A stretch of 64,000 bases of DNA from Xanthobacter sp. NM-59 (GTDB taxonomy: Bacteria > Pseudomonadota > Alphaproteobacteria > Rhizobiales > Xanthobacteraceae). The position numbers were made by a program, and so were the translations under genes. The notes below the pieces were generated by a model. The model saw nothing but the letters and a program-made list of their open reading frames with translations, was not told where the DNA came from and did not search any database. This document shows positions 27,559 to 54,055 of this stretch, in pieces (within the stretch, counting starts at the first letter, position 1; each line of letters begins with the position of its first letter). The stretch lies in the NCBI RefSeq assembly GCF_021401125.1, contig NZ_JACBFQ010000007.1, positions 1 through 64,000 of the forward strand, in the 5' to 3' direction.

Positions 27559-29391
27559 TCACAGCCGGGCGGGCGCCTCCGCCGGTCCGGCCAGGGCGGC
27601 GCGATCCGCCTCGGTGAGCGCAGCCGCGCCGGCCGGTCGCAGGAGCAGCAGGGCTTCCCCCTCCACCTCCCGCATCGGCCGGTGATGGGCCCAGCCGAAC
27701 ACGTCCACGACGAGGTCGGGGGCCTGCTCGCCAAACCAAGCCAGCGCCTCCGCCGGGCCGATCTGCTGAATGATGCGCGGGCTGGGAGCCCGCTGGCCCA
27801 GCAGCAGCAACCGCGCCCCGCGACGCGCCCGCGCCGCGAGCGCGGCCAGGGCCGCGGCCGGGTCATGCACCGCCTGAAGGTCAATCGGCTCGAAAGTCAC
27901 CCGTGTGCCCAGACGCCGGGAGAATCCGTGCGCCGCCAGCATCCTCCGCGCGATGCCAGCAAGCCCCAGCACCGGCGCCCCCCGGCAGTGACGGCGCAAG
28001 GCGCGCGCGCCGAAGCGCTGTTCCAGAACCTGATGGTCGGCGCTTGAAAGCGCCCGCAGCGCTGCCGCCATGCCGCCATTGCGCGCGAGTTCCACTTCCA
28101 GCGCGGCCCCCGCCTTCGCCAGCCGGCGGATGGGCGCCCCATACCAGGGCAGGCGCGGCGCGGGGGGCTGGGCGGAGGCCTCCTCCACCCGCCGGCACAG
28201 GCTCTCCCCATCATCCTGGCGCACCAGCCCCTGCTCGAGAACGTGGCCCACCAGGGCGGCGACCCGGCCCGACTCAGGCGCCGCCGGCGGCCCCGCACCA
28301 AGGACCGCCCCGAGGTCCGCGCCGTCCTCGATGTCAATGGTGAGGCCCTTGCGCCCGTAATAGGGCTCTCCCCAGGCGATGACGGGACGCCCCGCCATCA
28401 GCGCCTCCATGCCCACATTGGAAGAGTGCAGCCCCACGACATCGCAGAGCGCAAACAGATCGTGGATGGAGACATTGCGCACCAGGCGCACATGCTCCGG
28501 CAACCCTTCCGCCCGGCTGGGATCGGGCCCGCGGGGATGCGCCTTGAAGATGACGCGCCACCCCTCGGGCAGGCTGCGGAAGACCGCCCGGTAGATACTC
28601 GCCAGGTCCGGGTAGTTCCGCAGGCTCACGGTGATGCTGGCATCGAACGCCACCTGGCCCGGCACGAACAGAACCGGCCCCGGCCGCTGTGCCAGCCACG
28701 CCTTCAGCCCTTCGAGCTCGCCGCTGTCGGTGGACTGCTGATATTTGGAGCCGCGCTCGGCACGGATGCGGGCAATGAAGCCCACCGCGCGCACCGCCGC
28801 CCCCCCCTCATCGAGGCCCTCGCCCCTCTGCCAGGTGCGGTCGATGCGATGGGCGCCGCGAAAAAAGTGCGGCGCATAGGGATCCACGAAGTGGTAGCCG
28901 GGAAAAAAGGGGCTTTCCCAATACAGATAGCGGATGCCGAGATGGCTGCTCGCGGCCGCCAGAAGGCGTGAGAGGACCTCGGCCCCATGGGGCACGAACA
29001 CCACCTCCGGCGCCAGCTTTTCCATCACCGCGAGCGCTTCGCCCGTCACCCCGCGCAATTGCTGGCTCCAGACCGATTCGGTCAGCAGGCTGTCGATGCG
29101 CGCGTCGTCGATGGTGAGGCTGTGGGCCGACAGGTCGATGAGATCCGGACGGAAGCCATGACGGGCCTGGAAGGCGAAGGCGGACAGACGCGGCGCGGCA
29201 TCGAAGCCGCCCTGCAGCAGCACCGGCCCCTCGGGATCGCAGGCCGCATGCGCCTCGTCAGACCAGAAGGGGACGATCTGCGGCTCGAAGCCGCCGGCGC
29301 GCGCGGTCCGCGCCAGCAAGGCGGCATTGGTGGCCGATTCCTCCCCCACCATGCGGAAGATCACCGCCCGTCGCGCCCGACCACCCACCAT
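27559..29391 (-). CDS. Capsule polysaccharide biosynthesis protein (KpsC/PF05159-like) with extra C-terminal domain
   Basis: About 610 residues from ATG 29391. The central part (about 90-390) matches the KpsC/KpsS-type capsule family: YLYWESPFFPGYHFVDPYAP, VLFVPGQVAFDASI, WRVIFKAHPRGPDPS, DVVGLHSSNVGMEALMAGRP and WGEPYYGRKGLTIDIED. In E. coli such proteins are beta-Kdo transferases building the lipid linker of group 2 capsules; RkpJ of Sinorhizobium is a relative by memory. The C-terminal ~180 residues contain GAPVLGLAGIARRMLAAHGF and a hydrophobic strand pattern I cannot assign. The gene is divergent from the pyruvyl transferase and borders the polysaccharide/lipid locus. Enzymatic role is inferred. 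Confidence 0.82.
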   Translation of the reverse strand: MVGGRARRAVIFRMVGEESATNAALLARTARAGGFEPQIVPFWSDEAHAACDPEGPVLLQGGFDAAPRLSAFAFQARHGFRPDLIDLSAHSLTIDDARIDSLLTESVWSQQLRGVTGEALAVMEKLAPEVVFVPHGAEVLSRLLAAASSHLGIRYLYWESPFFPGYHFVDPYAPHFFRGAHRIDRTWQRGEGLDEGGAAVRAVGFIARIRAERGSKYQQSTDSGELEGLKAWLAQRPGPVLFVPGQVAFDASITVSLRNYPDLASIYRAVFRSLPEGWRVIFKAHPRGPDPSRAEGLPEHVRLVRNVSIHDLFALCDVVGLHSSNVGMEALMAGRPVIAWGEPYYGRKGLTIDIEDGADLGAVLGAGPPAAPESGRVAALVGHVLEQGLVRQDDGESLCRRVEEASAQPPAPRLPWYGAPIRRLAKAGAALEVELARNGGMAAALRALSSADHQVLEQRFGARALRRHCRGAPVLGLAGIARRMLAAHGFSRRLGTRVTFEPIDLQAVHDPAAALAALAARARRGARLLLLGQRAPSPRIIQQIGPAEALAWFGEQAPDLVVDVFGWAHHRPMREVEGEALLLLRPAGAAALTEADRAALAGPAEAPARL

Positions 29392-29650
29392 CACCCATCC
29401 ACCTGCCTCTGCTGCGAAAGGGTATAGACCGCTTTCGCCCGCTCCACACCCGCCCGAGAAAGGAACCCATCCGCCTTGGCAGGGCTTCGTGAGATGCCAC
29501 AGCCGCACGCCCTACGTGAATCAGCGGTATAACTCGCGCGTTTCGAGGGTGCCGAGGCGATCAAATCCGGGTATCAACCGCTCGGGAAACCGAAACCAAA
29601 CCCGCCCGCCGGATCCGGCACGCCACAAACGGAACCGAATTGGGATGCAC

Positions 29651-29674: not shown

Positions 29675-30826
29675 ATGGAGACATCCCCCATTCAAGAGGA
29701 AGCTGCAGCATTGGGTGCGGTGCCCCTGGTCTGGGCCGCGGCGACGGCGGACCAATCTCACCTCAATCTCGGCGACGCACTGAGCCCGGTCATGGTGGCC
29801 CTGCTCTCCGGTCTTCCTGTCGTCCATGCCGGCCACAATGCGAAGCGAACCCGCATGGCCGCGGTCGGCACCATTGGCCAGATGCTGCAGAACGGGGATG
29901 TGACCGTATGGGGAACAGGCGCGTCGCGCTACAGCAATCCCCATGTGGTGCCGCGTTCCGATCGCATGCCCTTCACGCCCTACCCCGGCACCCGCTACCG
30001 CATCGCCGCCACGCGCGGCCCGGTGTCCCGCGCGCTGTTCGCCCAGGAAGAAACCGGTGCCCCGGCAGCCTACGGCGATCCGGTGTGGCTGCTCCCGCAA
30101 TTCTACCGTCCGCAGATCGAGAAGAAGTGGGAACTCGGGGTCATCGCCCACCTTTCCGACCTCAGCGGATCGGACCTGGACGCTCCCGTGCGCCCCGAGC
30201 TGCTGCGCTATCAGCTGCCGGAGGAGTTCCGCGACAGCGTCCGCATCATCCGCACACGCACCGCCATTTCCGCGGCCGCCCTGCGTGAGCGGCTCGACGA
30301 GATTCTCGCCTGCCGGCGCATCGTCTCCGCCAGCCTGCACGGCATGGTTTTTGCGGAAAGCTACGGCATTCCGTGCCTCTATTTCTCCCCGCGCGGGACC
30401 CAGCGCGGCTTGGTACGCCAGCACCTTTCCCCGGACAACGGCCAGGATTTGCGCATCACGGACCTCTACCAGGGCCTGGGCCTGAAAGAACTGCCCGTTT
30501 ATGTTCAGTCGCGGCGCGCCCGCACCAACTGGGCCCACCTGATGAAGAGCATCGACCGCTTCTGGGAGCCAAAGGCGTTCGACTACGAACCCCTGCTGTC
30601 GGCGTTCCCACTGGAGATGGCCCCGCTCCATCCGCTGCCGGGTCAAAGCGTGTTCGAGCATCCCCTGATTCGCGACCTTCCCTTCCAACACACCAGTTAC
30701 ACGCGGGCCAACATGGTGGCGAAGACCGCCCCGCAAGGCCTCAAGCGGCTGGTCCGCCGGCTCATGAAGCGCGATGCGGACGAGGCCGCCGCCGACACCT
30801 CATCCGAGACTTCGGGCCTCCATTGA
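29675..30826 (+). CDS. Polysaccharide pyruvyl transferase family protein
   Basis: About 383 residues, starting at ATG 29675 (METSPIQEEAAALGAVPLVW); ATG 29672, 29660 and 29645 are in frame and possible. Landmarks are HLNLGDALSPVMVALLSGLP near the start, GTIGQMLQNGDVTVWGTGAS, AYGDPVWLLPQFY, ELGVIAHLSD, and near residue 210 ACRRIVSASLHGMVFAESYG, the usual C-terminal motif of CsaB/ExoV-type pyruvyl transferases. The enzyme transfers pyruvate ketals from PEP to sugars of surface polysaccharide. It overlaps no neighbour and is 11 bases before a GT4 gene, so both are likely co-transcribed. Confidence 0.85.
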   Translation: METSPIQEEAAALGAVPLVWAAATADQSHLNLGDALSPVMVALLSGLPVVHAGHNAKRTRMAAVGTIGQMLQNGDVTVWGTGASRYSNPHVVPRSDRMPFTPYPGTRYRIAATRGPVSRALFAQEETGAPAAYGDPVWLLPQFYRPQIEKKWELGVIAHLSDLSGSDLDAPVRPELLRYQLPEEFRDSVRIIRTRTAISAAALRERLDEILACRRIVSASLHGMVFAESYGIPCLYFSPRGTQRGLVRQHLSPDNGQDLRITDLYQGLGLKELPVYVQSRRARTNWAHLMKSIDRFWEPKAFDYEPLLSAFPLEMAPLHPLPGQSVFEHPLIRDLPFQHTSYTRANMVAKTAPQGLKRLVRRLMKRDADEAAADTSSETSGLH

Positions 30827-30837
30827 CAGGACACCCC

Positions 30838-32148
30838 ATGGCCGCCGACAGCCGCTCCCGCCGCTTCATCATGATCGACGGCTACAACCTCGCTTTGGAA
30901 CGGGGGACAGGCGTTGCGACCTATGCGCGCAATCTGAGCTTTGCCTGCGGAGCACTCGGATACCGTACGGACATCCTCTACGGCATTCCCTCCGCCACCA
31001 CGAAGGACCCCTTCTTCCGCGAAGTGTCGTTCTTCGCGACCCAGCCCGAGCGGACGAAATGGACCACGCGCCTCGCCCGTGACATTCACAGCCTGACCAC
31101 GCCGCACGTGAATCCACGGGCGCTTTCCATTCCCGTCAGCGGGCGGGTCATCATCGACCAGTTCGCGAGCCAGCTCCCGCACTTCGACCACATCTGGAAT
31201 GCGGCGAACCTGTTCGATCGGGCCTTCACCCTTTACTATGCGTACCGCCGCTTCAGCACGGTTGTCGGCACCGATACGCCGGACATCATGCATTGGACCT
31301 ATCCGCTGCCCATCCGGCTGAAGAATACCAAGAACATTTATACCATCCACGACTTGGTGCCGCTGCGCCTGCCCTACACGACGCTGGATAATCGAAAATA
31401 TTATTTCAGCCTCATCAAGGCCCTGCTGCAGCGGGCGGACCATATCGTTACCGTCTCCGAGTCGTCGAAGAAGGACATCGTCGAGATCTTCGGCTACCCA
31501 GAGGAAAAGATTACCAACACCTATCAGGCCGTCTCCATTCCGCAGCCCCTGCGCGAGAAAAGCGACGATGTGGTGCGCCAGGAGGTCGAAGGCGTCTTCA
31601 ATCTGCCCTACAAGTCCTATTTCCTGTTCTTCGGCGCTATCGAACCGAAGAAGAATGTCGGCCGCATGATCGAGGGCTATCTGTCGAGCCAGGTGAAGGA
31701 GCCGCTGGTGCTCGTGGGCAAGCCCGCCTGGAAGGCGGACCGCGAGTTGCGCGTGCTGGCTGAAACCTCCCACGGGGAGCGCGTGCGCAGGTTCGAATAT
31801 GTCTCCTTCCCGTTCCTCGTCAGCCTCATCCGCGGCGCGAAGGCGGTGCTGTTCCCCTCTCTTTATGAAGGTTTTGGCCTGCCCATCCTGGAAGCCATGC
31901 TGCTCGGAACGCCGGTACTCACCTCGAATCGCAGCTCCATTCCCGAGATCACCGGCGACGCCGCGCTGCGGATCGACCCCTACGACACGCGCGCCATCGC
32001 CGAGGGAATCCAGACCCTTTCCGCCGACGCAGCCCTGTGTGAGACGCTCAGCGCCAAGGGGAAAATTCAGGCAGATCTGTTCTCGCCCGAGCGCTATCAG
32101 GCCCGTGTCCGCGCCCTCTACGATCAGCTGCTCTGGCCGAACGGATGA
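30838..32148 (+). CDS. Glycosyltransferase family 4 protein
   Basis: 436 residues from ATG 30838. The N-terminal half has the GT-B donor-independent fold features (GYNLALERGTGVATYARNL, MHWTYPLPIRLKNTKNIYTI HDLVPLRLP, split for quoting). The C-terminal half has FLFFGAIEPKKNVGRMIEGY and the GT4 EX7E motif in LFPSLYEGFGLPILEAMLLG. It should transfer a sugar from a nucleotide donor during surface polysaccharide synthesis; donor and acceptor are unknown. It is placed directly after the pyruvyl transferase. A long gap follows before the polyketide synthase. Confidence 0.9.
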   Translation: MAADSRSRRFIMIDGYNLALERGTGVATYARNLSFACGALGYRTDILYGIPSATTKDPFFREVSFFATQPERTKWTTRLARDIHSLTTPHVNPRALSIPVSGRVIIDQFASQLPHFDHIWNAANLFDRAFTLYYAYRRFSTVVGTDTPDIMHWTYPLPIRLKNTKNIYTIHDLVPLRLPYTTLDNRKYYFSLIKALLQRADHIVTVSESSKKDIVEIFGYPEEKITNTYQAVSIPQPLREKSDDVVRQEVEGVFNLPYKSYFLFFGAIEPKKNVGRMIEGYLSSQVKEPLVLVGKPAWKADRELRVLAETSHGERVRRFEYVSFPFLVSLIRGAKAVLFPSLYEGFGLPILEAMLLGTPVLTSNRSSIPEITGDAALRIDPYDTRAIAEGIQTLSADAALCETLSAKGKIQADLFSPERYQARVRALYDQLLWPNG

Positions 32149-32766: not shown

Positions 32767-35700
32767 ATGACGAACCGCATCAGCCGTGCCCAGACGCCGA
32801 TGCCCGAGATTGGACAGAACCACGCCGCCGCAATTCTGGGCTATGCCTGCCGGTTGCCGGGGGCTGCTAACGTGGACGCTTTCTGGTCCGTGCTGTCGCA
32901 GGGGCGTTGCGCCATCACCGAGATCAGCTCCGAGCGGTGGGCCAAGGAGCGCTTCCTGCATCCGCGCTCCGGAGAGCCGGGCCGCACCTATACCTTCGCC
33001 GCCGGCGTGCTCGACGACATCTACGATTTCGACCCCGGCGCCTTCGGCCTCTCCCCGCGTGAGGTGGAGCAGGTCGACCCCCAGCAGCGCATCCTGCTCG
33101 AGCTCACCCGCGAGGCGTTCGAGAACGCGAACCTTCCCCTGTCCGAGCTGGAAGGCAGCTCGGTGGGCGTGTTCGTGGGCGCCTCGTCCCTCGATTATTC
33201 GGTACGGTTCGCGGCGGACGTGTGCTCCATTGATCCGCATTTCGTCACCGGCAACGCGCTTTCCATCATTTCGAACCGCATTTCGTTCGCGTTTGGCTTC
33301 ACCGGCCCCAGCCTGACCATCGACACCGCCTGCTCATCTTCCCTGGTGGCGTTCGACCGTGCGGTGCGCGCCATTGAAAGCGGCGAAGTCGAAGTGGCGG
33401 TGGTGGCGGGCGTGAACATTCTCGCTGCGCCGTATAACTTCGTCGGCTTCGCGCGCGCGGGCATGCTCTCGCCCACCGGCCGCTGCCGCCCCTTCTCCGC
33501 CCAGGCCGATGGCTATGTGCGCTCCGAGGGCGCCGTGGTGATGGTGCTGCGCCGCCTGGATGCGACGCGCGGCACGCTTCAGCCGCCGCGCGCGGTGGTG
33601 CTCGGCACCGGCACCAATTCCGATGGCCGCACGGTCGGCATCGCGCTGCCCAACACCAGCGCCCAGCAAGCCCTCATCGAGAATGTCTACGCCGCGCGGG
33701 GCATCGATCCGGAGGCCCTGGCCTTCATCGAGGCCCACGGCACCGGCACGCGGGTGGGTGATCCGGCAGAGGCGAACGCCATCGGCAATGCCATCGGTCG
33801 CCGGCGCTCGGCGCCGCTGCCCATCGGCTCGGTCAAGTCCAACCTCGGCCATCTGGAGCCCGCGTCCGGGCTCGCTGGCCTTTTGAAATCGCTGCTGGCG
33901 CTGCAACACAAGCTGCTGCCGGCGTCGCTGCATCTCGATGAGCTCAATGAGAGCATCCCGTTCGACGAACTGAACCTCGCGCCCGCGCGCACCCCCGTGG
34001 CCCTTGAAGAGGGACGCGAGGCGGCGGCGGTGTCTTCGTTCGGCTTCGGTGGAACCAACGCCCATGCGGTCGTGCGCCTGCCGCACTCGGACGAATGGGA
34101 AGCCCCCGCCAGCCCGGCCGAGAGCGCGCGACCTGCTGCCCTCGCCATCTCGGCTTCCAGCCGCAAGGCCCTGGCCGATCTCGCCGCCGACTACGCCGCC
34201 GCCATCGAGGCCGGCGCGGATCCGGCGATGCTGGCCAATGGGGCGGCCCATGGCCGTTCGCAGCTCGCTCATCGCCTGGCGCTGCCGCTCGACGGCATTC
34301 TCAAGCCGGCGGACGCCCTGCGCCGCTTCGCCGCCGATCAGCCGGAGCCCGGCCTCGTCTCCGGCGTCTCGGACCGGCCCCAGCGCATTGCCTTCGTGTT
34401 CGCGGGCAATGGCGGGCAATATGTGGGCATGGGGCGCACCGCCCAGCTGGCGAGCCCGGCCTTCCGCGACTCTATCGCGCGTATCGACGCCTTTTTCGTG
34501 CCCCACGCCGGCTGGTCCATCGCCGAGGCGCTCGAGGCCCCGGCTGACCTGGAGCGGATCGCGGCAACCGAGATCGCCCAGCCCATGCTGTTCGCCATCG
34601 GCGTCGGTCTTGCCGAGAGCCTGATGGCCGCAGGGTGCCAGCCCTCCGCCGTGCTCGGCCACAGCGTGGGCGAAATCCCGGCCGCCTATATCAGCGGCGC
34701 GCTCGACCTGAAGGAAGCGGTGGAGGTCATCTACTGGCGTTCCAAGCTGCAGGAGCCCGCCCGCGGCACCGGCGGCATGGCCGTGCTCATGGCTTCCAAG
34801 GACGACGCAGCCGCCCTCATCGGCCCGCCGGAAGCGTCCGGCGTGGTCATCGCCGCCGTCAACAGCCCGAGCGTGGCCACCATCGCCGGCCCCCATGCCG
34901 AGCTTGATGCCCTGCTGAAGCGCGCCCGCAAGAGCGGCGTCGCCGGCAAGCGCATGGACCTGGACTATCCCTTCCATTCGCCGCTGATGGCGCCGGTGGA
35001 AGGCCCCCTGCGCGAGGCCCTTGGTGGGCTGCACCCGCGCGCAAGCCACATTCCCTTCTTCTCCACCGTCACCGGCCGCCTGTTCGACACCACCCGCCTC
35101 GACGGCGAATACTGGTGGCACAATGTGCGTGAACCGGTGCTGTTCGCCGATGCGGTGCTCGGCGCCGCCGAGGTCGAGAAGATCGACATTTTCCTGGAAA
35201 TGGGCCCGCGGCCGGTGCTCACCGGCCACATGCGCGAGACGCTGGAACCGCTGCCGGGAAGCCATGTGGTGCTTGGTTCCCTGCAGGAAAAGGCGCCGGC
35301 CCATCGCGACCCGGTGTTGCAGACCCTGCTGTCGTGCTTCGTCGAGGGCGCGCCGGTGGCGCGCGAGCGCCTGTTCGGTGCGCGGCGCCCGCTGGGCGAG
35401 GTCAAGCTGCCGCTGACGCCGTGGCAGCGCCAGACCATTGTGGTGCCCGAGAGCGTGGAAGCGGCGGACGTGGGCGGCACCCATCGCCTGCATCCCCTGC
35501 TCGGCGCCCGCCTGCGCCAGGATTCCCAGGAATGGCATGGCCTCCTGGATCCCCAGCTGGTGCCGTATCTCGCCGACCACAAGGTGAACGACACGGTGGT
35601 GGTGCCCGGCACCGCCTTGGCCGAGATGGCGCTGGCCGCCGGCCGCGAGATCCATGGCGATGTGCCGCTGGCCCTGGAGGAATTCGACATCCTCCACGCC

Positions 35701-38700
35701 CTCACCCTGGGCGAGGAAGGCGGGCGCGAGAGCCTGGTGCGCGTCGCCCCCACCGGCCTTGTGGAAATCCTGAGCCGGCCGCGCCTTACCACGGACTGGA
35801 CCCTTCACGCCCGCGGCCACCTGGCGCCGTCGTCCTCCACGCCGGCCGACCGCGCGCCGGTGGACCAGGATGCGAGCGCCCCGGCCCTGCCCGTCACCGC
35901 CAGCGATCTCTACGCGGCCGCGGAGCGCATGGGCCTGCAATATGGCCCGCAGTTCCGGCTCGTGACGGAAGCGGTTCGCCGTGGCCGCCGCATCGACCTG
36001 GAACTGAAGCCCGAAAACGCCGACCAGGGCGCGTTTGGCCTTTCCCACGTGCTGCACCCCACCGTTCTGGATGCGTGCCTGCACGGCCTGCTGCTGGCGG
36101 TTGACCCGGCGGCGCTGGAGGATGGGCGCGTCTATCTGCCGGCCCGCTTCGGTGCGCTACATGTTTTCGCCGCCTCTTCGGTGGCGCGGGCCGAGCTGGC
36201 GGTGGTGCGCGCCAGCGCCCGCTCGCTGCTGCTCGACATCCGCCTCCTGGATGCCGAAGGCCATGTTGTGGCGCGGCTCGACGGTGCGCGCCTGCGGGCG
36301 GCGACCCTCTCCAACACCGCGGCGACCGAGACCGACTATCGCCAGCATCTGGAAGCCCTGCCTGCCTCCGTGGCGGATATTTCTGTCGTGGAGCAGGTGG
36401 AAGCCGCCTTCAGCGGTCTCGACGACAGCGTGGATGCCGGCGACGCCCATGTGCTGCTGAACGCGTTCGCCACCGCTTTGGCCCATGAGGCGGTTTCCGG
36501 CCTGCTGAAGGGCGATGTCGCCGCCCTCAGCTCCGTGAATCCGGACGATCTGGTGGAGCGGGGCATTCTCGCCGATGCGGCGCGCCCGACCCTGCTCGCG
36601 CTGCTGTCCATCCTCGCCGCCGGTGCCCTCGCCGCCCGCGAGGGGCAGGTGTGGACGGTGATCGCCGACAGCGGCCTTCCGGACAGCGCCAGCATCCTGG
36701 CCGAGGTGTTGCGGGATGCGCCCGAGCGCGCTGCGGAAGTCACCATCGGTTCCTATCTGGCCGCGGCGCTGCCGGCCCATCTGGCGACCGGCGAGCTCCT
36801 GCGCATCACCGGCGCGCTGCTGGACCACTGGGAGGCTTCCGCGCCGCCCGCGCGGGCCCTGCAGGAGGTCGCCCGCGCCCTGGTGGAAGGCGGGCGCAAG
36901 TCCGCTCCGGCCCGTGTCCTGGTGGTGGAGCGCCACGGCGCCGTGGCCCTGGCGCTGCTGCCGCTCGCACAGGCGGGCCACATCCGCCTCGCGGTGGATG
37001 GCAGCGAGCCCTCCGTGCGCGAGACCCTCGCCGCGCGCCATCCGGCCCTTGCCCCCCTGCTCGCCCCGGCCGCCGATGGCGAGGTCAGCACCTATGACGT
37101 GGTGCTGGCCGCCGACCCCCACCCGCTGGTGCTGGAAACCGAGCCCCTGGCCGCGCGCCTTGCCAAGCGGGTCAGCGGCGGCGGCGTGCTGGCCGTGCTG
37201 CAGCTTGAAAGCCATCCCTTCGCCGCGCTGATCGACGCGGTTGGAGCGGAAGAGGACAGCCCCGCCCGCCACCGTCCCATGGCGGAAACGGCCCAGCGCC
37301 TGGCCACGGCCGGCTTCCTGGGCGTGAAGACCCGCCGGGCCGTTCTCGCCGACGCCGTGGTGGACGTGCTTGTGGCCCGCGCCCCCCTGCCCGAGGCGGA
37401 CGGCGCCCCGCAGGCCGAAGCTGCACTGGCCGAGGCCATCAGCCTGGAATTTGCCCACAGCACCGCGCCCGCCAGCCTGGTTGCGGCAATCGATGCGGCG
37501 GGTCACCTGAGTGCCCTGCGCCGGCTGGAAAGCGGCACCGCGCCCGGAGCCGACCTGCCATTGGCCGACGGCGAGGGGCGCAGCCTCGTCCTGCATCCGC
37601 TCATGCCGACCACGGCCGAGCCGGCCGCACTCGCCGGCCTGTTCACCCATGCCACCGCCCTTCTGGAGGCGGTGCGCGCCCATCCGGGCAAGGCCGAAGT
37701 GTGGTTCCTCACCCGCGGCAATGCGCCGGTGAATGGCAGCCCACTGGCCAGCGCCTGCTGGGGCTACGGCCGCGTTGCGGTCAACGAGTTCGCGGATATC
37801 GACCTGCGTCTCGTGGATGTGGCGCCGAGCCTCGACGCCGACACCGCCGCCGGGCGCCTCGCCGCGCTGCTGCTGGCTGCGCCGGAAGAGCGGGAACTGG
37901 TGATCGGCGATGGCCCGGTTTCGGCCGTGCGCACCACCACCGGCGCCGCGGCGCGCGAGCAGGTGGCGCCCGATGGCGAGCCGACCACCACCATGGCCCG
38001 CCTGGAGGCGAAGCCCGGCTCCATGGACCGGCTGACCTGGGTGGGCGCCCCGCGCCCCGCCCTTGCCGCCGATGCCGTGGAAATCGAAGTGGCCGCGAGC
38101 GCCCTCAATTTCCGCGACGTGATGTTCGCCCAGGGCGTGATCGGCGACGAGATGCTGGAGAACGGCTTTACCGGCCCCTCCCTCGGCTTCGAATGCTCCG
38201 GCGTCGTGACCCGGATCGGTACCGCGGTCTCAAGCGTGAAGGTGGGCGACCGCGTCATGGCGTTCGCCCCCGCGGCCTTCGCCTCCCACGTGGTGGTCTC
38301 GGCCAACATGGCCATGCCGGTGCCCGACAATGTGCCTCTGAAGGCGGCCGCCACCATTCCGGTGGCCTTCCTCACCGCGTGGTACGGCCTTGTCACCCAG
38401 GCCCGGCTGAAGCGCGGTGAGTGGGTGCTGGTGCACGGCGCGGCCGGCGGCGTGGGCCTGGCGGCCCTGCAGATCGCCAAGTGGCTCGGCGCGCGCATCG
38501 TCGCCACCGCCGGCACGCCAGAGAAGCGCGCCTTGGCGGCTCTCGCGGGGGCCGACCTGGTGCTCGATTCCCGCTCCCTGGCCTTCGTGGACGACATCCG
38601 CTCCGCCATTGGCGGGGTGGACGTGGTGCTCAACTCCCTGGCGGGCGAGGCCATGGAGCGTTCCATCAAGGTGCTGAAGCCCTTCGGCCGCTTCGTGGAG

Positions 38701-40254
38701 CTGGGCAAGCGCGACTATATCGGCAACACCGAAATCGGCCTGCGCCCGTTCGCCCGTAACCTGTCCTATTTCGGTGTCGATACCGACCAGCTCATCGCCG
38801 CCCGGCCGGACGCGCTGCAGGAGCTGTTCGGCGATCTGGTGCGGCTTCTGGCGGAGGGCGAGTTCACGCCCCTGCCCTATCGCGAGTTCGCCGCCGACAG
38901 CGCGCCGGAGGCGTTCCGCCTCATGCAGGGCGCCGGCCATGTGGGCAAGATCCTGCTCACCCCGCCCGTGACGCCTCCTCCCGTGGCCGAGACGCCGGCC
39001 CCGTTCCGGGCCGCCGCGGAAGGCGTGCACCTGGTGGTGGGCGGCACCGGCGGCTTCGGCTTCGAAACCGCCATATGGCTCGCGGACCATGGGGCGAACG
39101 CCATCGTGGTGGCTTCGCGCAGCGGTGCCCTGACGCCGGAGGCGGCCGCCCGCGCCGCCGCCCTCTCCGCCCGTGGCGTGACGCTGACCGCCGAGCGCCT
39201 GGACGTGCGCGACGCCGAGGGCGTGAAGCGCTTCGTCGATGGGCTGGTTGAGCGCTATGGGCGCCTCAGCGGCGTGGTGCACGCGGCCATGGTGCTGGAT
39301 GATGGCCTGCTGCGGGACCTCACTGCCGAGCGCTTCGAGAAGGTGCTGGCCCCCAAGATTGAGGGCGCGGCCCATCTGGATGCCGCCACGCGGAACCTCG
39401 CCGTCGCGCCCGATTATTTCGTGATGTTCTCCTCGGCCACCACGCTGGTGGGCAATCCGGGGCAAGGCAATTACGTGGCCGCCAATGCCTTCCTTGAGGG
39501 CCTGGCCCGCGACCGCCGCGCCGCCGGCCTCCCGGCGCTCGCCGTGTCGTGGGGTGCCATCTCGGACGTGGGCGTGCTGGCGCGCGAGACCGCCATCAAC
39601 GAAAAGCTGAAGCGCCGCATCGGCCGCCACGCCATGGCGTCGGCCACCGCGCTGAAGCATCTCGGCGCCTTCCTTTCGGAGGGCGACGCCATCCACCCGC
39701 CGGCCGTGACCTGCGCCTATATCGACTGGTCGACCGCCGGCGAGCTGGCCCTGGTGAAGGCGCAGACCTTCGCCGCCCTGCTCACCGACGGGCGCAGCGA
39801 GCGTACGCTGGGCAAGAGCTCCGACCTCGAAAGCCTCATCGCGGGGCAGAACGAGTCCGAGGCGCGCCTCACCATCGCCCGCCTGCTGGCTGAGGAGATC
39901 GGCAAGATCCTGCGCCTGCCAGTGGAGGCGGTGGACCTGACGCGTCCGCTCATGGACATCGGCATGGATTCGCTGATGAGCCTGGAACTCGACATGGAAG
40001 TGCAGCGCCGGTTTGGCGTGGAACTGCCGGTGCTGGCGCTGGGCGCCGGCTCCACCCTCATGGACGTGGCTGAAAAGGTGCTCCAGCAGGTGCGCGGCAG
40101 CGGCGATGCCGGGACCGCCACGCCCGAACAGCTGATCGCCGAGGCCGGCATCATGGACAAGCACGTGGATCTCGATCTCGACAAGGACGCCATCGCGCGG
40201 CTCAGCGCCAAGGTGATCAGCGAGAGCGAGCACACGGGCGGAGGCATAATGTGA
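32767..40254 (+). CDS. rkpA: Type I polyketide/fatty-acid synthase, RkpA/WcbR-like (KS-AT-DH-[degenerate MT]-ER-KR-ACP)
   Basis: 2495 residues, with AGAGGGG before ATG 32767. Domains: KS about 18-440 (Cys189 in DTACSSSL, His324, His362); AT about 540-840 (Ser633 in GHSVGE; YPFH at 734-737 suggests malonyl); DH about 915-1190 (His938, Asp1102); 1220-1740 a degenerate methyltransferase-like and structural KR region; ER about 1750-2060 (HGAAGGVG at 1890-1897); KR about 2085-2330 (GGTGGFG, Ser2223, Tyr2236, Asn2240); ACP about 2365-2440 (Ser2402 in GMDSL). No thioesterase. All reductive domains look active, so a saturated chain is expected, made iteratively. Size and order match, from memory, RkpA of Sinorhizobium K-antigen synthesis and WcbR of the Burkholderia capsule. 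Confidence 0.9.
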   Translation: MTNRISRAQTPMPEIGQNHAAAILGYACRLPGAANVDAFWSVLSQGRCAITEISSERWAKERFLHPRSGEPGRTYTFAAGVLDDIYDFDPGAFGLSPREVEQVDPQQRILLELTREAFENANLPLSELEGSSVGVFVGASSLDYSVRFAADVCSIDPHFVTGNALSIISNRISFAFGFTGPSLTIDTACSSSLVAFDRAVRAIESGEVEVAVVAGVNILAAPYNFVGFARAGMLSPTGRCRPFSAQADGYVRSEGAVVMVLRRLDATRGTLQPPRAVVLGTGTNSDGRTVGIALPNTSAQQALIENVYAARGIDPEALAFIEAHGTGTRVGDPAEANAIGNAIGRRRSAPLPIGSVKSNLGHLEPASGLAGLLKSLLALQHKLLPASLHLDELNESIPFDELNLAPARTPVALEEGREAAAVSSFGFGGTNAHAVVRLPHSDEWEAPASPAESARPAALAISASSRKALADLAADYAAAIEAGADPAMLANGAAHGRSQLAHRLALPLDGILKPADALRRFAADQPEPGLVSGVSDRPQRIAFVFAGNGGQYVGMGRTAQLASPAFRDSIARIDAFFVPHAGWSIAEALEAPADLERIAATEIAQPMLFAIGVGLAESLMAAGCQPSAVLGHSVGEIPAAYISGALDLKEAVEVIYWRSKLQEPARGTGGMAVLMASKDDAAALIGPPEASGVVIAAVNSPSVATIAGPHAELDALLKRARKSGVAGKRMDLDYPFHSPLMAPVEGPLREALGGLHPRASHIPFFSTVTGRLFDTTRLDGEYWWHNVREPVLFADAVLGAAEVEKIDIFLEMGPRPVLTGHMRETLEPLPGSHVVLGSLQEKAPAHRDPVLQTLLSCFVEGAPVARERLFGARRPLGEVKLPLTPWQRQTIVVPESVEAADVGGTHRLHPLLGARLRQDSQEWHGLLDPQLVPYLADHKVNDTVVVPGTALAEMALAAGREIHGDVPLALEEFDILHALTLGEEGGRESLVRVAPTGLVEILSRPRLTTDWTLHARGHLAPSSSTPADRAPVDQDASAPALPVTASDLYAAAERMGLQYGPQFRLVTEAVRRGRRIDLELKPENADQGAFGLSHVLHPTVLDACLHGLLLAVDPAALEDGRVYLPARFGALHVFAASSVARAELAVVRASARSLLLDIRLLDAEGHVVARLDGARLRAATLSNTAATETDYRQHLEALPASVADISVVEQVEAAFSGLDDSVDAGDAHVLLNAFATALAHEAVSGLLKGDVAALSSVNPDDLVERGILADAARPTLLALLSILAAGALAAREGQVWTVIADSGLPDSASILAEVLRDAPERAAEVTIGSYLAAALPAHLATGELLRITGALLDHWEASAPPARALQEVARALVEGGRKSAPARVLVVERHGAVALALLPLAQAGHIRLAVDGSEPSVRETLAARHPALAPLLAPAADGEVSTYDVVLAADPHPLVLETEPLAARLAKRVSGGGVLAVLQLESHPFAALIDAVGAEEDSPARHRPMAETAQRLATAGFLGVKTRRAVLADAVVDVLVARAPLPEADGAPQAEAALAEAISLEFAHSTAPASLVAAIDAAGHLSALRRLESGTAPGADLPLADGEGRSLVLHPLMPTTAEPAALAGLFTHATALLEAVRAHPGKAEVWFLTRGNAPVNGSPLASACWGYGRVAVNEFADIDLRLVDVAPSLDADTAAGRLAALLLAAPEERELVIGDGPVSAVRTTTGAAAREQVAPDGEPTTTMARLEAKPGSMDRLTWVGAPRPALAADAVEIEVAASALNFRDVMFAQGVIGDEMLENGFTGPSLGFECSGVVTRIGTAVSSVKVGDRVMAFAPAAFASHVVVSANMAMPVPDNVPLKAAATIPVAFLTAWYGLVTQARLKRGEWVLVHGAAGGVGLAALQIAKWLGARIVATAGTPEKRALAALAGADLVLDSRSLAFVDDIRSAIGGVDVVLNSLAGEAMERSIKVLKPFGRFVELGKRDYIGNTEIGLRPFARNLSYFGVDTDQLIAARPDALQELFGDLVRLLAEGEFTPLPYREFAADSAPEAFRLMQGAGHVGKILLTPPVTPPPVAETPAPFRAAAEGVHLVVGGTGGFGFETAIWLADHGANAIVVASRSGALTPEAAARAAALSARGVTLTAERLDVRDAEGVKRFVDGLVERYGRLSGVVHAAMVLDDGLLRDLTAERFEKVLAPKIEGAAHLDAATRNLAVAPDYFVMFSSATTLVGNPGQGNYVAANAFLEGLARDRRAAGLPALAVSWGAISDVGVLARETAINEKLKRRIGRHAMASATALKHLGAFLSEGDAIHPPAVTCAYIDWSTAGELALVKAQTFAALLTDGRSERTLGKSSDLESLIAGQNESEARLTIARLLAEEIGKILRLPVEAVDLTRPLMDIGMDSLMSLELDMEVQRRFGVELPVLALGAGSTLMDVAEKVLQQVRGSGDAGTATPEQLIAEAGIMDKHVDLDLDKDAIARLSAKVISESEHTGGGIM

Positions 40255-41639
40255 GCGCCAACAACACCCAGGGTCGCCTTTCGGCCGACGCCAAGGCCGC
40301 GCTTTTGAACCGCATGCGCAGCACCACGCCCGGGGGCGCCGCCCCCGTGGCCGCCGCCGCCACGCCCCATTACGACACCTCGTTCGCGACCCTTCCGGGT
40401 TTCGAACAGCTGAAGCTCATGCACGCGGCCACGAACGCCTTCGGCATTCCGAACCCGTTCTTCCGCACCCATGACGTGCGCGCCGGCGCCACCTCCGTCA
40501 TCGGCGGCAAGGAGGTGATCAACTTCGCCTCTTACGACTATCTCGGCCTGAACGGCGCGCCGGAGGTGATGGCCGCCGCCCATGGCGCCGTGGATGCCTA
40601 TGGCACCAGCGTTTCGGCCAGCCGCATCGTGGCCGGCGAGCGCGCCTTCCACCGCGATTTCGAGCGCGAGCTCGCCGCCGTCTACGGCACCGACGACGCC
40701 ATTGTCTATGTGAGCGGCCATGCCGCCAATGTCGCCACCATCGGCACGCTGGTGGGCCCGCGCGACGTGGTGTTTCACGACGAGCTGATGCACAACAGCG
40801 CCATCGTCGGCACCCAGCTCTCGCGCGCCCATCGCCGCTGGTTCGCCCACAACGATCTCGACGCACTGGAGGCCATGCTGGCCGCCGACCGCGCCAGCTA
40901 TGGCCGCGCGCTGATCGTGGTGGAGGGCAACTATTCCATGGACGGGGACGCCCCCGACCTCGCCCGCCTCGTGGACCTCAAGCAGCGCTATGGCGCCTGG
41001 CTGATGGTGGACGAGGCCCACAGCCTCGGCGTCCTGGGCACGCGTGGCCTCGGCATTTTCGAGGCCCAGGGCATCGACCCCAGGTCGGTCGACATCTGGA
41101 TGGGCACCTTGTCCAAGACCCTGGCGAGCTGCGGCGGCTATATCGCCGGCTCCAAGGACTTGGTGGATTATCTGAAGCTGTCGGCGCCCGGCTTCGTCTA
41201 TTCGGTGGGCCTGTCCGCGCCGGCGACCCTTTCGGCCCTGACCGCCCTGCGGCTGATGCTGCAGGAGCCGGAGCGGGTGGCGCGCCTGCAGGCCAACAGC
41301 GCCCGCTTCCTCGCCGCCGCCAAGGCCGCCGGGCTCGATACCGGGGCAGCGGACGGCCATGCCATTCTGCCCGTCATCGTGGGCGACTCCCTCAAGGCGG
41401 TGGTGTTGTCGAACCTGATGCTTGATCGGGGCGTGAACGTGCTGCCCATCATCCATCCGGCGGTGCCCAACAAGGCGGCCCGGCTGCGCTTCTTCGTGAC
41501 GGCCGCGCACACGCCCGAGCAGATCGACGCGACGGTGAACATCCTCAAGGAAGAGCTGCCGAAAACCGACGCCTTCATCCGCAAGCTCGCCTTCGCGGGC
41601 ATCTCGGACATGCTGGAAGGCGGCGCCGGACAAGGCTGA
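40251..41639 (+). CDS. rkpG: PLP-dependent alpha-oxoamine synthase (AONS/serine-palmitoyltransferase family), RkpG/WcbT-like
   Basis: 462 residues from GTG 40251, overlapping the rkpA stop as GTGA, so translation is coupled. The class II aminotransferase-fold motifs are complete: NFASYDYLGLNG, DELMHNSAIVG (PLP-stacking His), DEAHSLGVLGTRG (Asp254, His257) and the Schiff-base lysine Lys289 in TLSKTLASCGG. Family members condense an acyl thioester with an amino acid, losing CO2 (biotin, heme and sphingoid-base synthesis). An N-terminal extension of about 60 residues starts with a basic helix (SADAKAALLNRMRS). Coupling to an ACP-bearing synthase without thioesterase suggests it releases the finished chain as a 2-amino-3-keto lipid. 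RkpG homologues have been called acyltransferases; this chemistry is my inference. Confidence 0.88.
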   Translation: MSANNTQGRLSADAKAALLNRMRSTTPGGAAPVAAAATPHYDTSFATLPGFEQLKLMHAATNAFGIPNPFFRTHDVRAGATSVIGGKEVINFASYDYLGLNGAPEVMAAAHGAVDAYGTSVSASRIVAGERAFHRDFERELAAVYGTDDAIVYVSGHAANVATIGTLVGPRDVVFHDELMHNSAIVGTQLSRAHRRWFAHNDLDALEAMLAADRASYGRALIVVEGNYSMDGDAPDLARLVDLKQRYGAWLMVDEAHSLGVLGTRGLGIFEAQGIDPRSVDIWMGTLSKTLASCGGYIAGSKDLVDYLKLSAPGFVYSVGLSAPATLSALTALRLMLQEPERVARLQANSARFLAAAKAAGLDTGAADGHAILPVIVGDSLKAVVLSNLMLDRGVNVLPIIHPAVPNKAARLRFFVTAAHTPEQIDATVNILKEELPKTDAFIRKLAFAGISDMLEGGAGQG

Positions 41640-41699: not shown

Positions 41700-42998
41700 A
41701 TGACGATCCTGATGGACATCACGCGCATCTTCCGGCGCGCGCCGCAGCTCACGCCCACGGGCATCGACCGGGTGGAGCTCGCCTACGCCCTCCATCTGCT
41801 GAAGCGGGATGATGTGCGCTACATCGTGCGCTACCGCCAGCGTGTCTGGCCGCTGCGCCGGCAGCCGGTGCCGCGCTTCCTGTCGGCGCTCGAGGCCCGC
41901 TGGAACGGGGCCAAGATCGCCGCCGCCCGTTCAGGCGAGACCGAGCGCCTGGAAACGTTCCTCGCGCTGCCGGCGGGCACCCTGGCCGAACCGCACGCCT
42001 CCGGAACGACGGCGCCGGTGGCAGACATCTGGCCGCTCTATGCCAGCCTGTTTTCCCCGGGCGATGGGCTGACCGGCGCGCTGGCCCGGCCGGTGGGCCG
42101 TGGTGCCATCTATCTCAATGTCTCCCATGAGGGGCTGACCTTCCCGGGCGACATGGAGCGGCTGGTGCGCGAACTCGGCTGGAAGCCGGTCTACCTGATC
42201 CACGACCTTATTCCGCTGACCCACCCGGAATATGTGCGCGAGGGCGACGAGGCCAAGCACGACTTGCGCATGACGCAGGTTCTGAACACGGCCGCCGCCA
42301 TCATCTACAATTCCGCCCACACCGAGCAGACCATGCGCGACTTCGCCGCGCGCAAGGGCTTGGCGATGCCACCGGGCATTGTGAGCCTGCTCGGGATCGA
42401 GGAAAAGTTCCAGCGGCTCCACCCGCCCGCCGTGGCCGGGGCGACAGCGACGGCGCCCCCCTATTTCGTCGCCGTGAGCACTATCGAGCCGCGCAAGAAC
42501 CACCTGCTGCTGCTGCATCTGTGGCGCCGGCTCGCCGAGCTGCGGGGGCAAGCCACGCCCAAGCTGGTGCTGGTGGGCCGGCGTGGGTGGGAAAACGAGA
42601 ACATCGTCGATCTGCTGGATCGGGCCAGCGGGCTGAAGCCCCATGTGTTCGAATGCAACCGCCTCGCCGATGAACAATTGACGCGGCTGCTGCGGGGCGC
42701 GCGGGCGATGCTCTTTCCCTCCTTCGCGGAGGGCTATGGCCTGCCGCTGGCGGAAGCCCTGGCCCTGGGCGTGCCCGTCATCGCCTCGGAGCTGGAGGTC
42801 TTCCACGAGATCGCGGGCGACATCCCCTGCTACCGGGACGCCATTGACGGGCTGGGCTGGAGCGCGGCCATCGAGGACTTCTGCCGCCCGGACTCCGCGC
42901 TGCGCCAAGGCCAGATGGCCGCGCTGAAGGACTTCCGCGTGCCCACCTGGCCCCTCCACTTCGCCAAGGCGGATGAGCTGCTCGACAGCCTCACCTGA
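41700..42998 (+). CDS. Glycosyltransferase family 4 protein
   Basis: 432 residues from ATG 41700, 60 bases after rkpG. It begins TILMDITRIFRRAPQLTPTG IDRVE (split for quoting), a start I associate with capsule-cluster GT4 enzymes. It contains YLIHDLIPLTHPEYVREGDE, FVAVSTIEPRKNHLLLLHLW and the EX7E motif FPSFAEGYGLPLAEALALG. It is about 40 residues shorter in its linkers than the 30838 enzyme and diverged, so probably adds a different sugar. Likely in the same transcript as rkpA-rkpG and a candidate for glycosylating the lipid. Confidence 0.9.
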   Translation: MTILMDITRIFRRAPQLTPTGIDRVELAYALHLLKRDDVRYIVRYRQRVWPLRRQPVPRFLSALEARWNGAKIAAARSGETERLETFLALPAGTLAEPHASGTTAPVADIWPLYASLFSPGDGLTGALARPVGRGAIYLNVSHEGLTFPGDMERLVRELGWKPVYLIHDLIPLTHPEYVREGDEAKHDLRMTQVLNTAAAIIYNSAHTEQTMRDFAARKGLAMPPGIVSLLGIEEKFQRLHPPAVAGATATAPPYFVAVSTIEPRKNHLLLLHLWRRLAELRGQATPKLVLVGRRGWENENIVDLLDRASGLKPHVFECNRLADEQLTRLLRGARAMLFPSFAEGYGLPLAEALALGVPVIASELEVFHEIAGDIPCYRDAIDGLGWSAAIEDFCRPDSALRQGQMAALKDFRVPTWPLHFAKADELLDSLT

Positions 42999-48866: not shown

Positions 48867-49928
48867 ATGCGGGTTCTGATCACGGGTGGCGCGGGCTTCA
48901 TCGGCTCGGCGGTGGTACGGCATGTGGTGGGCCTCGGGCACGAGGCGCTGACCTTCGACAAGCTGACCTATGCCGGCAATCTTGCTTCACTGGAGCCGGT
49001 GAAGGACAATCCGCGCCACCGCTTCCTGAAGGCCGACATCTGCGACGCGGCCGCCGTGCGCGCCGCCCTCGCCGAGTTCCGCCCGGATCTGGTGATGCAT
49101 CTGGCGGCCGAGTCCCATGTCGACCGCTCCATCGACGGGCCCGCCGCCTTCATCAATACCAATGTGGTCGGCACCTTCACGCTGCTCCAGGAGGTTCTGG
49201 ACTACTGGCGCGCGCTGCCGGAGGCGGCCAAGGCGGCCTTTCGCTTCCACCACATTTCCACGGACGAAGTGTTCGGCAGCCTGGGACCGGAGGGCCTGTT
49301 CCGCGAGGACACGCCCTATGCGCCCAATTCGCCCTATTCCGCCTCCAAGGCGGCTTCGGACCATCTGGTCCGCGCCTGGCACCACACCTATGGGCTGCCG
49401 GCGGTGATGTCCAACTGCTCCAATAATTACGGGCCCTACCACTTCCCGGAAAAGCTCATCCCGCTGGTGATCCTCAACGCGCTCGACGGCGCGGAGCTGC
49501 CCATCTACGGCACCGGCGAGAACGTGCGCGACTGGCTCTATGTGGAGGACCACGCCGAGGCGCTGTTCATCATCGCCACCCGCGGGCGGCCTGGCGAGAG
49601 CTACAATGTGGGCGGCGCCAGCGAGCGGCGGAACATCGATGTGGTGCGCACCATCTGCACCACCCTCGACGCCAACGTGCCCGACCCCGCGGGCCCGCGT
49701 GAGCGGCTCATCCGCTTCGTCACCGACCGCCCCGGCCATGATGCGCGCTACGCCATCGACTTCTCGAAGCTCCAGCGCGAGCTCGGCTGGTCGCCACGCC
49801 ACACGTTCGAGGGCGGCATTGCCAGCACCGTGCAATGGTACCTCGACAACCGCGCCTGGTGGGAACCGCTGCGCCAGCGCTACCAGGGCCAGCGGCTCGG
49901 TCTCACTCCCGCGGAAAAGGCCTCCTGA
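48867..49928 (+). CDS. rfbB: dTDP-glucose 4,6-dehydratase
   Basis: 353 residues. A Rossmann fold begins [20 protein letters not shown]. The catalytic triad region contains [13 protein letters not shown] and [17 protein letters not shown] (Tyr-x-x-x-Lys), with the dehydratase-specific Asp-Glu pair in [25 protein letters not shown] is diagnostic for RfbB. It converts dTDP-glucose to dTDP-4-keto-6-deoxyglucose, the precursor of rhamnose and other deoxysugars. It overlaps rfbD by one base. rfbA and rfbC are not in this window and must be elsewhere. Confidence 0.95.
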
Positions 49929-54052: not shown

Positions 54053-54055
54053 GGT

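What the first reader, a model, noticed from the sequence alone, without database searches (positions are those of the whole stretch)
32767..41639. RkpA-type synthase coupled to an alpha-oxoamine synthase: possible dedicated sphingoid-like amino-lipid pathway
Seen: a fully reducing one-module PKS/FAS with intact KS, AT, DH, ER, KR and ACP, no thioesterase, and a PLP-dependent AONS/SPT-family enzyme starting inside its last codons (GTGA). Known: AONS/SPT enzymes release acyl thioesters by decarboxylative condensation with an amino acid. In fumonisin synthesis a KS-AT-DH-MT-ER-KR-ACP synthase, an oxoamine synthase and a P450 work in this order. RkpA/RkpG and WcbR/WcbT are needed for capsules in Sinorhizobium and Burkholderia, and RkpG homologues are usually called acyltransferases. 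Inference: the pair makes a saturated 2-amino-3-keto long-chain lipid, a sphingoid-base analogue, as a capsule or glycolipid anchor. If true, this gives a chemical meaning to a capsule gene set whose product is still unclear to me.
Basis: partly seen in the sequence, partly recalled or inferred. Interest (0 to 1): 0.82.

Follow-up and report, generated by a model that had tools for sequence, protein, structure and literature searches.

The report
Capsule-linked bacterial sphingoid-base synthase gene cluster
Two overlapping bacterial genes very probably build a long-chain sphingolipid base, the kind of molecule found in animal membranes, and related genes keep company in many bacteria with genes that start surface capsules, so the base may be the grease that anchors a capsule.

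Summary
Window 32767-40254 encodes one reducing PKS/FAS module (KS-AT-DH-ER-KR-ACP, no thioesterase), and an alpha-oxoamine synthase (AOS) starts in its stop codon. The inferred chemistry is already in print for a homologue: in Pseudomonas fluorescens MYb115 the PKS SgaA and AOS SgaB make C24-C28 sphinganines, and purified SgaB condenses acyl-CoA with L-serine (PMC12134224). That paper's text never mentions rkp, wcb or capsules. New here: the window AOS, the S. meliloti rkp-1 AOS and SgaB-type enzymes share one clade apart from classical serine palmitoyltransferase, and the clade often travels with an SDR, a membrane protein of the GacH/LtaS phosphoglycerol-transferase family (window 43130-44944) and a KpsS-type Kdo transferase. 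In 299 genomes, 11 of 11 with the KpsS clade and 8 of 8 with the close transferase clade also have the AOS, which 18 of 299 have. I propose that sphinganine-phosphoglycerol replaces lyso-phosphatidylglycerol as the capsule anchor. The transferase is missing from many AOS genomes. The pair is a new member of a known kind; the anchor link is unproven and testable in S. meliloti.

The parts
27559..29508 (-). Capsule_synth-family protein (KpsC/KpsS-like, divergent, 649 aa)
   Evidence: PF05159 42.0 bits, cut-off 20; 70% identical in G013
30373..32148 (+). GT4-type glycosyltransferase
   Evidence: PF00534 1.1e-20; 76% identical in G013
32767..40254 (+). Iterative type I PKS/FAS, KS-AT-DH-ER-KR-ACP (RkpA/SgaA type)
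40251..41639 (+). PLP-dependent alpha-oxoamine synthase (RkpG/SgaB type), predicted serine acyl-ACP condensing enzyme
41700..42998 (+). GT4-type glycosyltransferase
   Evidence: PF00534 4.6e-18; also behind the AOS in three Ancylobacter loci L015, L016, L020
43130..44944 (-). Membrane LtaS/GacH-family phosphoglycerol transferase-like protein (homologue of the gene in the rkpI position of S. meliloti)
   Evidence: PF00884 2.1e-21; profile of 5 homologues hits GacH 5wcx at 4e-30, LtaP 4uop 1.3e-20, LtaS 2w5q 1.2e-11; 33% identical to L009:16385-17923
45204..46397 (+). GT2-type glycosyltransferase
   Evidence: PF13641 7.8e-10
46394..47779 (+). Cytochrome P450
   Evidence: PF00067 7.2e-43
47787..48785 (+). 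SAM-dependent methyltransferase
   Evidence: PF13489 8.3e-24
48867..49928 (+). dTDP-glucose 4,6-dehydratase (RmlB)
   Evidence: TIGR01181 476.6 bits, cut-off 365.1
49835..50815 (+). dTDP-4-dehydrorhamnose reductase (RmlD)
   Evidence: TIGR01214 341.3 bits, cut-off 224.05
50948..51724 (+). Ferredoxin-NADP reductase-like protein; may serve the P450 (inference) or be a housekeeping gene
   Evidence: NF008178 155.6 bits, below its cut-off of 390

Best explanation
The PKS and AOS are an SgaAB/RkpA-RkpG-type sphingoid-base synthase. The PKS builds a saturated long acyl chain on its own ACP. The AOS takes the chain by PLP-dependent decarboxylative condensation with an amino acid, most likely L-serine, giving 3-ketosphinganine. 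An SDR of the RkpH type, encoded elsewhere in this genome beside a KpsS-like gene, reduces it to sphinganine. The membrane protein at 43130-44944 adds phosphoglycerol to the 1-hydroxyl, giving a single-chain analogue of lyso-phosphatidylglycerol. The KpsS-like enzyme starts a Kdo-linked glycan on it, and the neighbouring glycosyltransferases, rhamnose genes, P450 and methyltransferase decorate the lipid or glycan. Shown elsewhere by experiment: PKS plus AOS give C24-C28 sphinganines and the AOS uses serine (P. fluorescens MYb115, where phosphoglycerol forms are proposed from mass); KpsS/KpsC act on (lyso)phosphatidylglycerol in E. coli. Inferred here: that the window pair does the same; the SDR, phosphoglycerol-transfer and Kdo steps; the anchor role; the decorations.
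For: Anatomy. Published homologue: sgaA and sgaB deletions abolish C24-C28 sphinganines; purified SgaB prefers L-serine almost exclusively and gives 3-ketosphinganine products; +154 Da forms; an SDR is proposed as ketosphinganine reductase (PMC12134224, sections read). AOS tree: the window AOS, the S. meliloti AOS (L009) and P0161/L010 lie in one 67-row clade (98/96) apart from 12 classical SPTs; the genome has no SPT over the NF047599 cut-off. PKS linkage: of 80 loci, 42 have at least 8.5 kb on both sides; the PKS is directly upstream on the same strand in 41, and in 1 (L036) it is 3.5 kb downstream on the other strand; 69 of all 80 have a PKS hit. Phosphoglycerol-transferase family. Co-occurrence in 299 genomes: AOS 18; KpsS clade (400 bits or more) 11, all AOS-positive; transferase clade (300 bits or more) 8, all AOS-positive, 7 of 8 within 2.5 kb of the KpsS gene. 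SDR adjoins KpsS in 8 of 10 loci examined (the 11th, G319, has none in L206). In the genus (14 genomes) the KpsS and SDR genes, on another contig than the cluster, are found only in the 2 genomes that have this cluster. KpsS/KpsC acceptor: PMC10148158 passages.
Against: Nothing was tested on these proteins themselves. The transferase was not found in 3 of the 11 KpsS-clade genomes (G224, G319, G322), in 10 of 18 AOS genomes at 300 bits, or in 11 of 13 AOS genomes among 61 relatives at E 1e-30, so the phosphoglycerol step is not universal. In 33 of the 42 fully flanked loci it is not within about 10 kb, and in 19 no SDR is. LtaS and GacH act outside the membrane (recalled) and KpsS/KpsC in the cytoplasm, so the product might have to flip back; a simple hydropathy count gives 4 to 6 helices in the five homologues and does not settle the side. 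Six same-genus genomes have a divergent AOS (PKS neighbour checked in two, G001 and G011) without the KpsS, SDR or transferase genes at the cut-offs used, so such pairs can serve something else. Export genes KpsM/T/E/D were not searched for in this genome. The phosphoglycerol structure in MYb115 is proposed from mass. The AOS scores higher on the BioF model than on SPT models, all below cut-off. The KpsS-like protein is below the KpsS equivalog cut-off (239.7 of 600).
Confidence: 0.6

Rival explanations
1. The pair makes a sphingoid base, but the base is a free or glycosylated membrane or secreted lipid (a rhamnose-bearing glycosphingoid, oxidised by the P450 and O-methylated) and has nothing to do with a capsule; the phosphoglycerol-transferase-like protein decorates a glycan after export, as GacH does (recalled).
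For: The window cluster holds three glycosyltransferases, RmlB/RmlD, a P450 and a methyltransferase, and no capsule exporter was seen among the window genes scanned (not every window gene was scanned); the KpsS-like gene is on another contig; MYb115 sphinganines are found free in extracts and affect a host; six same-genus AOS genomes lack the KpsS gene.
Against: KpsS-clade genes of 400 bits or more occur only in AOS genomes (11 of 11), mostly beside SDR genes (8 of 10); rkp-1 mutants of sinorhizobia are capsule-deficient and the region is described as making a specific lipid carrier (PMC4881576 passages).
Confidence: 0.25
2. The AOS uses alanine or glycine, not serine, and makes a 1-deoxy sphingoid or aminoketone (fumonisin-like).
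For: The AOS scores best on the BioF model (341.8 bits, below cut-off 426.45); an AOS with a P450 in one cluster recalls fumonisin (recalled; fumonisin papers seen only in a listing).
Against: Position 124 is Ser, as in the SPT and SgaB-type rows; two own-genome paralogues that look ALAS-like by motif have Thr, but the third (L113) also has Ser, so this is a weak sign. SgaB has near-exclusive preference for serine. Phosphoglycerol transfer to the base would need a 1-hydroxyl (inference).
Confidence: 0.1
3. The AOS is a plain acyltransferase or an AONS-type biotin-pathway enzyme, and the PKS product is a free or ester-bound fatty acid, as older rkp annotation implies.
Against: Below the bioF cut-off; PKS directly upstream in 41 of 42 fully flanked loci; the characterised homologue has SPT activity.
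Confidence: 0.05

Closest known systems
SgaAB of Pseudomonas fluorescens MYb115 (PMC12134224)
   Same: PKS next to an AOS with SPT activity. Protein P0161 (unnamed source), which ends in the six residues encoded by the sgaB primer, is 54% identical to the window AOS and in the same clade. A Pseudomonas plasmid locus (L010) holds PKS and AOS, then on the other strand PhyH, KpsC-like, GNAT, LtaS-like, SDR and KpsS-like genes; the MYb115 locus tags (AOS RS19800, SDR RS19775) fit the same AOS-to-SDR spacing.
   Different: The paper's text has no occurrence of rkp, wcb, capsul or LTA synthase. The window has P450, methyltransferase, RmlB/RmlD and three glycosyltransferases in the cluster, and its SDR and KpsS-like genes lie on another contig. 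The MYb115 sequence itself was not examined.
rkp-1 region of Sinorhizobium meliloti
   Same: L009 holds a polysaccharide export gene (other strand), PKS, AOS, SDR, LtaS-family membrane protein, Capsule_synth protein in that order; PKS, AOS, SDR, membrane protein and Capsule_synth protein each have a homologue in the window genome. The names rkpU-A-G-H-I-J are assigned by order (recalled; PMC7902896 passages give the gene names); the record's table gives products only.
   Different: In the window genome the set is split over two contigs and mixed with glycosylation and P450 genes.
Classical bacterial serine palmitoyltransferase (NF047599)
   Same: Shared catalytic residues and Ser before Arg in the GSR motif.
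   Different: Separate, well supported clade; the window AOS scores 288.1 bits against a cut-off of 500; the acyl donor is a partner PKS (inference).
Fumonisin-type fungal PKS plus oxoamine synthase clusters
   Same: PKS released by an AOS, with a P450 in the cluster (recalled).
   Different: Bacterial; no methyltransferase domain in the PKS by Pfam; linked to capsule genes.

Membership tests
SgaAB/RkpAG-type PKS-AOS sphingoid synthase | Single reducing PKS module with KS, AT, DH, ER, KR, ACP and no thioesterase | tested here: met
   motifs (DH motif has D for G)
SgaAB/RkpAG-type PKS-AOS sphingoid synthase | AOS gene directly beside the PKS, in the RkpG/SgaB clade | tested here: met
   4-bp overlap; clade support 98/96
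SgaAB/RkpAG-type PKS-AOS sphingoid synthase | Catalytic PLP lysine, stacking His, Asp/His pair, conserved Arg near the C-terminus (roles recalled) | tested here: met
SgaAB/RkpAG-type PKS-AOS sphingoid synthase | Ketosphinganine reductase (SDR) encoded in the genome | tested here: inconclusive
   Best of 30 SDR matches to the S. meliloti SDR is at C11 beside the KpsS-like gene (84 bits, 37%; next 75 bits); it scores 236 bits on the SDR profile, the other own-genome SDR loci 130 or less. Activity not tested
SgaAB/RkpAG-type PKS-AOS sphingoid synthase | Decarboxylative condensation with serine | not testable with these tools
   shown for PfSgaB
Classical serine palmitoyltransferase (NF047599/NF047600) | Score over the curated cut-off | tested here: not met
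   288.1 of 500 and 296.2 of 640 bits
8-amino-7-oxononanoate synthase (TIGR00858) | Score over the curated cut-off | tested here: not met
   341.8 of 426.45 bits
LtaS/GacH phosphoglycerol transferase family (43130-44944) | Membrane-anchored alkaline-phosphatase-superfamily domain with the E, T and D-H active-site residues | tested here: met
   profile E 4e-30 to GacH; E335, T374, D544, H545 invariant in 5 of 5; 4 to 6 hydrophobic stretches before the domain in the five homologues
LtaS/GacH phosphoglycerol transferase family (43130-44944) | Phosphoglycerol transfer activity | not testable with these tools
   none
ABC-transporter-dependent (group 2) capsule locus | KpsS-type Kdo transferase in the genome | tested here: inconclusive
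   PF05159 261 bits at C11, but the KpsS equivalog model NF050054 gives 239.7 bits, below its cut-off of 600
ABC-transporter-dependent (group 2) capsule locus | KpsM/KpsT/KpsE/KpsD export genes | not tested
   no search made in this genome

The most novel reading that the evidence does not exclude
The rkp-1, wcb and sga loci and this cluster encode one conserved route to a PKS-made sphinganine-phosphoglycerol lipid that takes the place of lyso-phosphatidylglycerol as the acceptor for KpsS-type Kdo transferases, so a whole class of Gram-negative capsules is anchored by a sphingoid base. In this bacterium the anchor may also be oxidised by the P450 and carry methylated rhamnose.
Probability: 0.42. 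Interest if true: 0.82.

Novelty: new member of a known kind. Interest (0 to 1): 0.62.

Why it matters
A 2016 review describes rkp-1 as making 'a specific lipid carrier' for capsule (PMC4881576 passage). Joining the 2025 SgaAB chemistry to the rkp gene set gives that carrier a concrete predicted structure, would explain why such capsule loci carry their own fatty-acid synthase, AOS, SDR and LtaS-family gene, and predicts sphingolipids in more bacteria than known. It also flags a likely naming error: many of these enzymes are called 8-amino-7-oxononanoate synthase.

Tried and rejected
Biotin AONS: rejected, below the curated cut-off and PKS-linked. Classical SPT: rejected as membership, separate clade and below cut-off. 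The sponge swf family, a look-alike one-module PKS: its paper sees no particular relationship to wcb, and its operon lists no AOS (abstract and passages). 43130-44944 as an ordinary sulfatase: rejected because the profile's best structures are phosphoglycerol transferases and the sulfatases come last, E 0.007 to 0.0096. That the missing transferase in G224, G319 and G322 was an artefact of the fast first look: not supported, the fetched stretches show none either (the G319 contig ends there).

Limits. A note also called the transferase periplasmic with about 5 helices; one search shows 4 to 6 and does not settle it. The 300-bit and 400-bit limits were set after seeing gaps in the scores (333 to 213 for the transferase; 446 to 382 between best hits per genome for KpsS). 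Looser counts still associate: 24 transferase genomes at E 1e-30, 9 AOS-positive; 33 KpsS genomes, 12 AOS-positive (p values, not corrected for kinship). Five of the 11 KpsS genomes are one genus; the 11 span 7 genera. G000 supplied one seed each to the transferase and KpsS profiles; without it the counts are 7 of 7 and 10 of 10. In some searches at most 5 or 6 first-look candidates per genome were scored. The tree program warns that long branches meet among the three own-genome paralogues. Literature statements rest on the held open library only: searches; two searches returned no paper joining these topics. The 1997 rkpGHIJ paper is not held. Of PMC12134224 I read the abstract, sections 7, 8, 9, 15 and passages; of the other papers abstracts or passages. 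No structure prediction was run.
Full report
WHAT IS THERE. Window 32767-40254 (+) encodes a 2495-residue synthase with KS, AT, DH, ER, KR and one ACP, all over Pfam cut-offs and without a thioesterase. Its catalytic motifs are in place, except that the DH motif has D where G is usual. The AOS (40251-41639, 462 aa) begins with GTG overlapping the PKS stop codon. It has the PLP lysine (289), His181, Asp254/His257 and Arg413 of the family. Its best solved relatives are serine palmitoyltransferases and 2-amino-3-ketobutyrate CoA ligase/AONS-type enzymes at E about 1e-63 to 1e-62. It passes no NCBIfam cut-off: BioF 341.8 of 426.45 bits, SPT 296.2 of 640 and 288.1 of 500. The bacterium is most likely a Xanthobacter: the nearest named AOS is 90% identical, from Xanthobacter sp. 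V4C-4.

THE NEIGHBOURHOOD. Around the pair lie a Capsule_synth protein (27559-29508, -), glycosyltransferases (30373-32148, 41700-42998, 45204-46397), a membrane protein of the sulfatase superfamily (43130-44944, -), a P450, a methyltransferase, RmlB and RmlD. One other genome of the genus (G013) carries the block colinearly, each gene at 70-96% identity.

THE CHEMISTRY IS ALREADY PUBLISHED FOR A HOMOLOGUE. Peters et al. 2025 (PMC12134224; abstract, sections 7, 8, 9, 15 and passages read) deleted the PKS gene sgaA or the AOS gene sgaB of P. fluorescens MYb115 and lost C24, C26 and C28 sphinganines. Purified SgaB bound L-serine and formed 3-ketosphinganines from acyl-CoAs, with near-exclusive preference for serine. 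Species 154 Da heavier were assigned, from mass, as phosphoglycerol sphingolipids. They found 6,101 homologous putative clusters, predominantly in Burkholderia. The text has no occurrence of rkp, wcb or capsul or LTA synthase. Two unnamed AOS proteins found with the AOS of a Pseudomonas plasmid (P0161 and P0186, 78% and 77% identical to it) end in the six residues that the published sgaB primer encodes; the window AOS is 54% identical to P0161.

ONE CLADE. In a maximum-likelihood tree of 88 AOS-family rows, the window enzyme, the S. meliloti AOS (L009), SgaB-type enzymes (P0161, L010) and those of Caballeronia (L011) and Methylobacterium (L012) fall in one 67-row clade (98/96). Twelve classical SPTs form another (100/100), and three paralogues of the window genome a third (100/89, with a long-branch warning). 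The window genome has no SPT over the NF047599 cut-off.

A PARTNER SET. Of 80 named loci, 42 have at least 8.5 kb on both sides. The PKS is directly upstream on the same strand in 41 and on the other strand nearby in 1. At the bit limits used, an RkpH-like SDR lies within the locus in 23, a KpsS-like protein in 13, the transferase-like protein in 9; so most of the 42 loci lack the last two within about 10 kb. S. meliloti (L009) has an export gene (other strand), PKS, AOS, SDR, LtaS-family protein and Capsule_synth protein in order. A Pseudomonas plasmid (L010) has PKS and AOS, then on the other strand PhyH, a KpsC-like protein, GNAT, an LtaS-family protein, SDR and a KpsS-like protein. A profile of five of the LtaS-family proteins hits GacH (phosphoglycerol transferase, 4e-30), LtaP and LtaS, ahead of any sulfatase, with the E, T and D-H residues conserved.

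CO-OCCURRENCE. In 299 genomes of the phylum the AOS occurs in 18 (E 1e-110). KpsS-clade genes of 400 bits or more occur in 11, all AOS-positive. Transferase genes of 300 bits or more occur in 8, all AOS-positive, and in 7 of the 8 they lie within 2.5 kb of the KpsS gene. SDR genes adjoin KpsS in 8 of 10 loci examined; in G322 and G224, two of the others, an SDR lies near the AOS instead, and in G319 none was seen. Without the window genome, which supplied seeds, the counts are 10 of 10 and 7 of 7. Hypergeometric values (9e-16 and 3e-11) ignore kinship; the 11 genomes are 7 genera. Among 61 relatives, 13 have the AOS and 2 the transferase, both AOS-positive. The genus itself is the most telling: in 14 genomes the KpsS-like gene and its SDR neighbour, on another contig than the cluster, are found only in G000 and G013, the two that have this cluster and its transferase. 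The 12 others have none of these at the cut-offs used, six of them in spite of a divergent AOS; I checked the PKS neighbour of that AOS in two (G001, G011).

MECHANISM PROPOSED. PKS makes the chain; AOS condenses it with serine; SDR reduces the ketone; the LtaS/GacH-type protein adds phosphoglycerol, giving a lyso-phosphatidylglycerol look-alike; KpsS adds the first Kdo. In E. coli, KpsS and KpsC build beta-Kdo on (lyso)phosphatidylglycerol (PMC10148158 passages), and rkp-1 is described as making a specific lipid carrier for capsule (PMC4881576 passages). The first two steps rest on published work on a homologue. The others are inference from gene content.

AGAINST IT. The transferase was not found in 3 of the 11 KpsS genomes and in most AOS genomes outside that set. 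If its active site is outside the membrane, as in LtaS and GacH (recalled), while Kdo transfer is cytoplasmic, the lipid would have to flip, or the transferase decorates something after export; the hydropathy count (4 to 6 helices) does not settle the side. The divergent AOS genomes of the genus have no KpsS partner. The KpsS-like protein is below the KpsS equivalog cut-off. The capsule export genes of this genome were not searched. No protein of the window was assayed.

VERDICT. Observation confirmed. The sphingoid-base chemistry is very likely (about 0.85) but is in print for SgaAB. The capsule-anchor role is about as likely as not for the family (about 0.5 to 0.55) and somewhat less certain for this cluster. 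Pair: new member of a known kind. The link between SgaAB and rkp-type capsule genes through a phosphoglycerol transferase is the part I did not find in print (text of PMC12134224; searches), and it makes an old question about the rkp lipid carrier directly testable.

Noticed in passing
L185 (G001:C1:2172000-2191999) and window 51849-57569: A same-genus genome has a divergent PKS-AOS pair (AOS 56% identical) beside homologues of the reductase and ABC-transporter genes that flank the window cluster, so the same chromosomal place seems to hold different cassettes.
   Followed up: partly
L014 7566-15164: In a Planktothrix agardhii plasmid record the PKS and AOS are one annotated gene, a natural fusion that fits direct hand-over of the chain.
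   Followed up: no
L011 12904-13830: In Caballeronia insecticola a gene annotated as UDP-3-O-acyl N-acetylglycosamine deacetylase lies between PKS and AOS.
   Followed up: no
L036 8900-14900: Methylocella tundrae carries homologues of the window methyltransferase and glycosyltransferases beside its AOS, on the other strand, with the PKS downstream instead of upstream.
   Followed up: no
L108 8500-10848 (G000:C13): A third Capsule_synth-family protein (782 aa) of the window genome sits near the end of a 16-kb contig; it may be a KpsC-like partner.
   Followed up: no
Many members of this AOS group are named 8-amino-7-oxononanoate synthase in public sources, although the window enzyme and the L009 and L010 enzymes score below the BioF cut-off.
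   Followed up: partly
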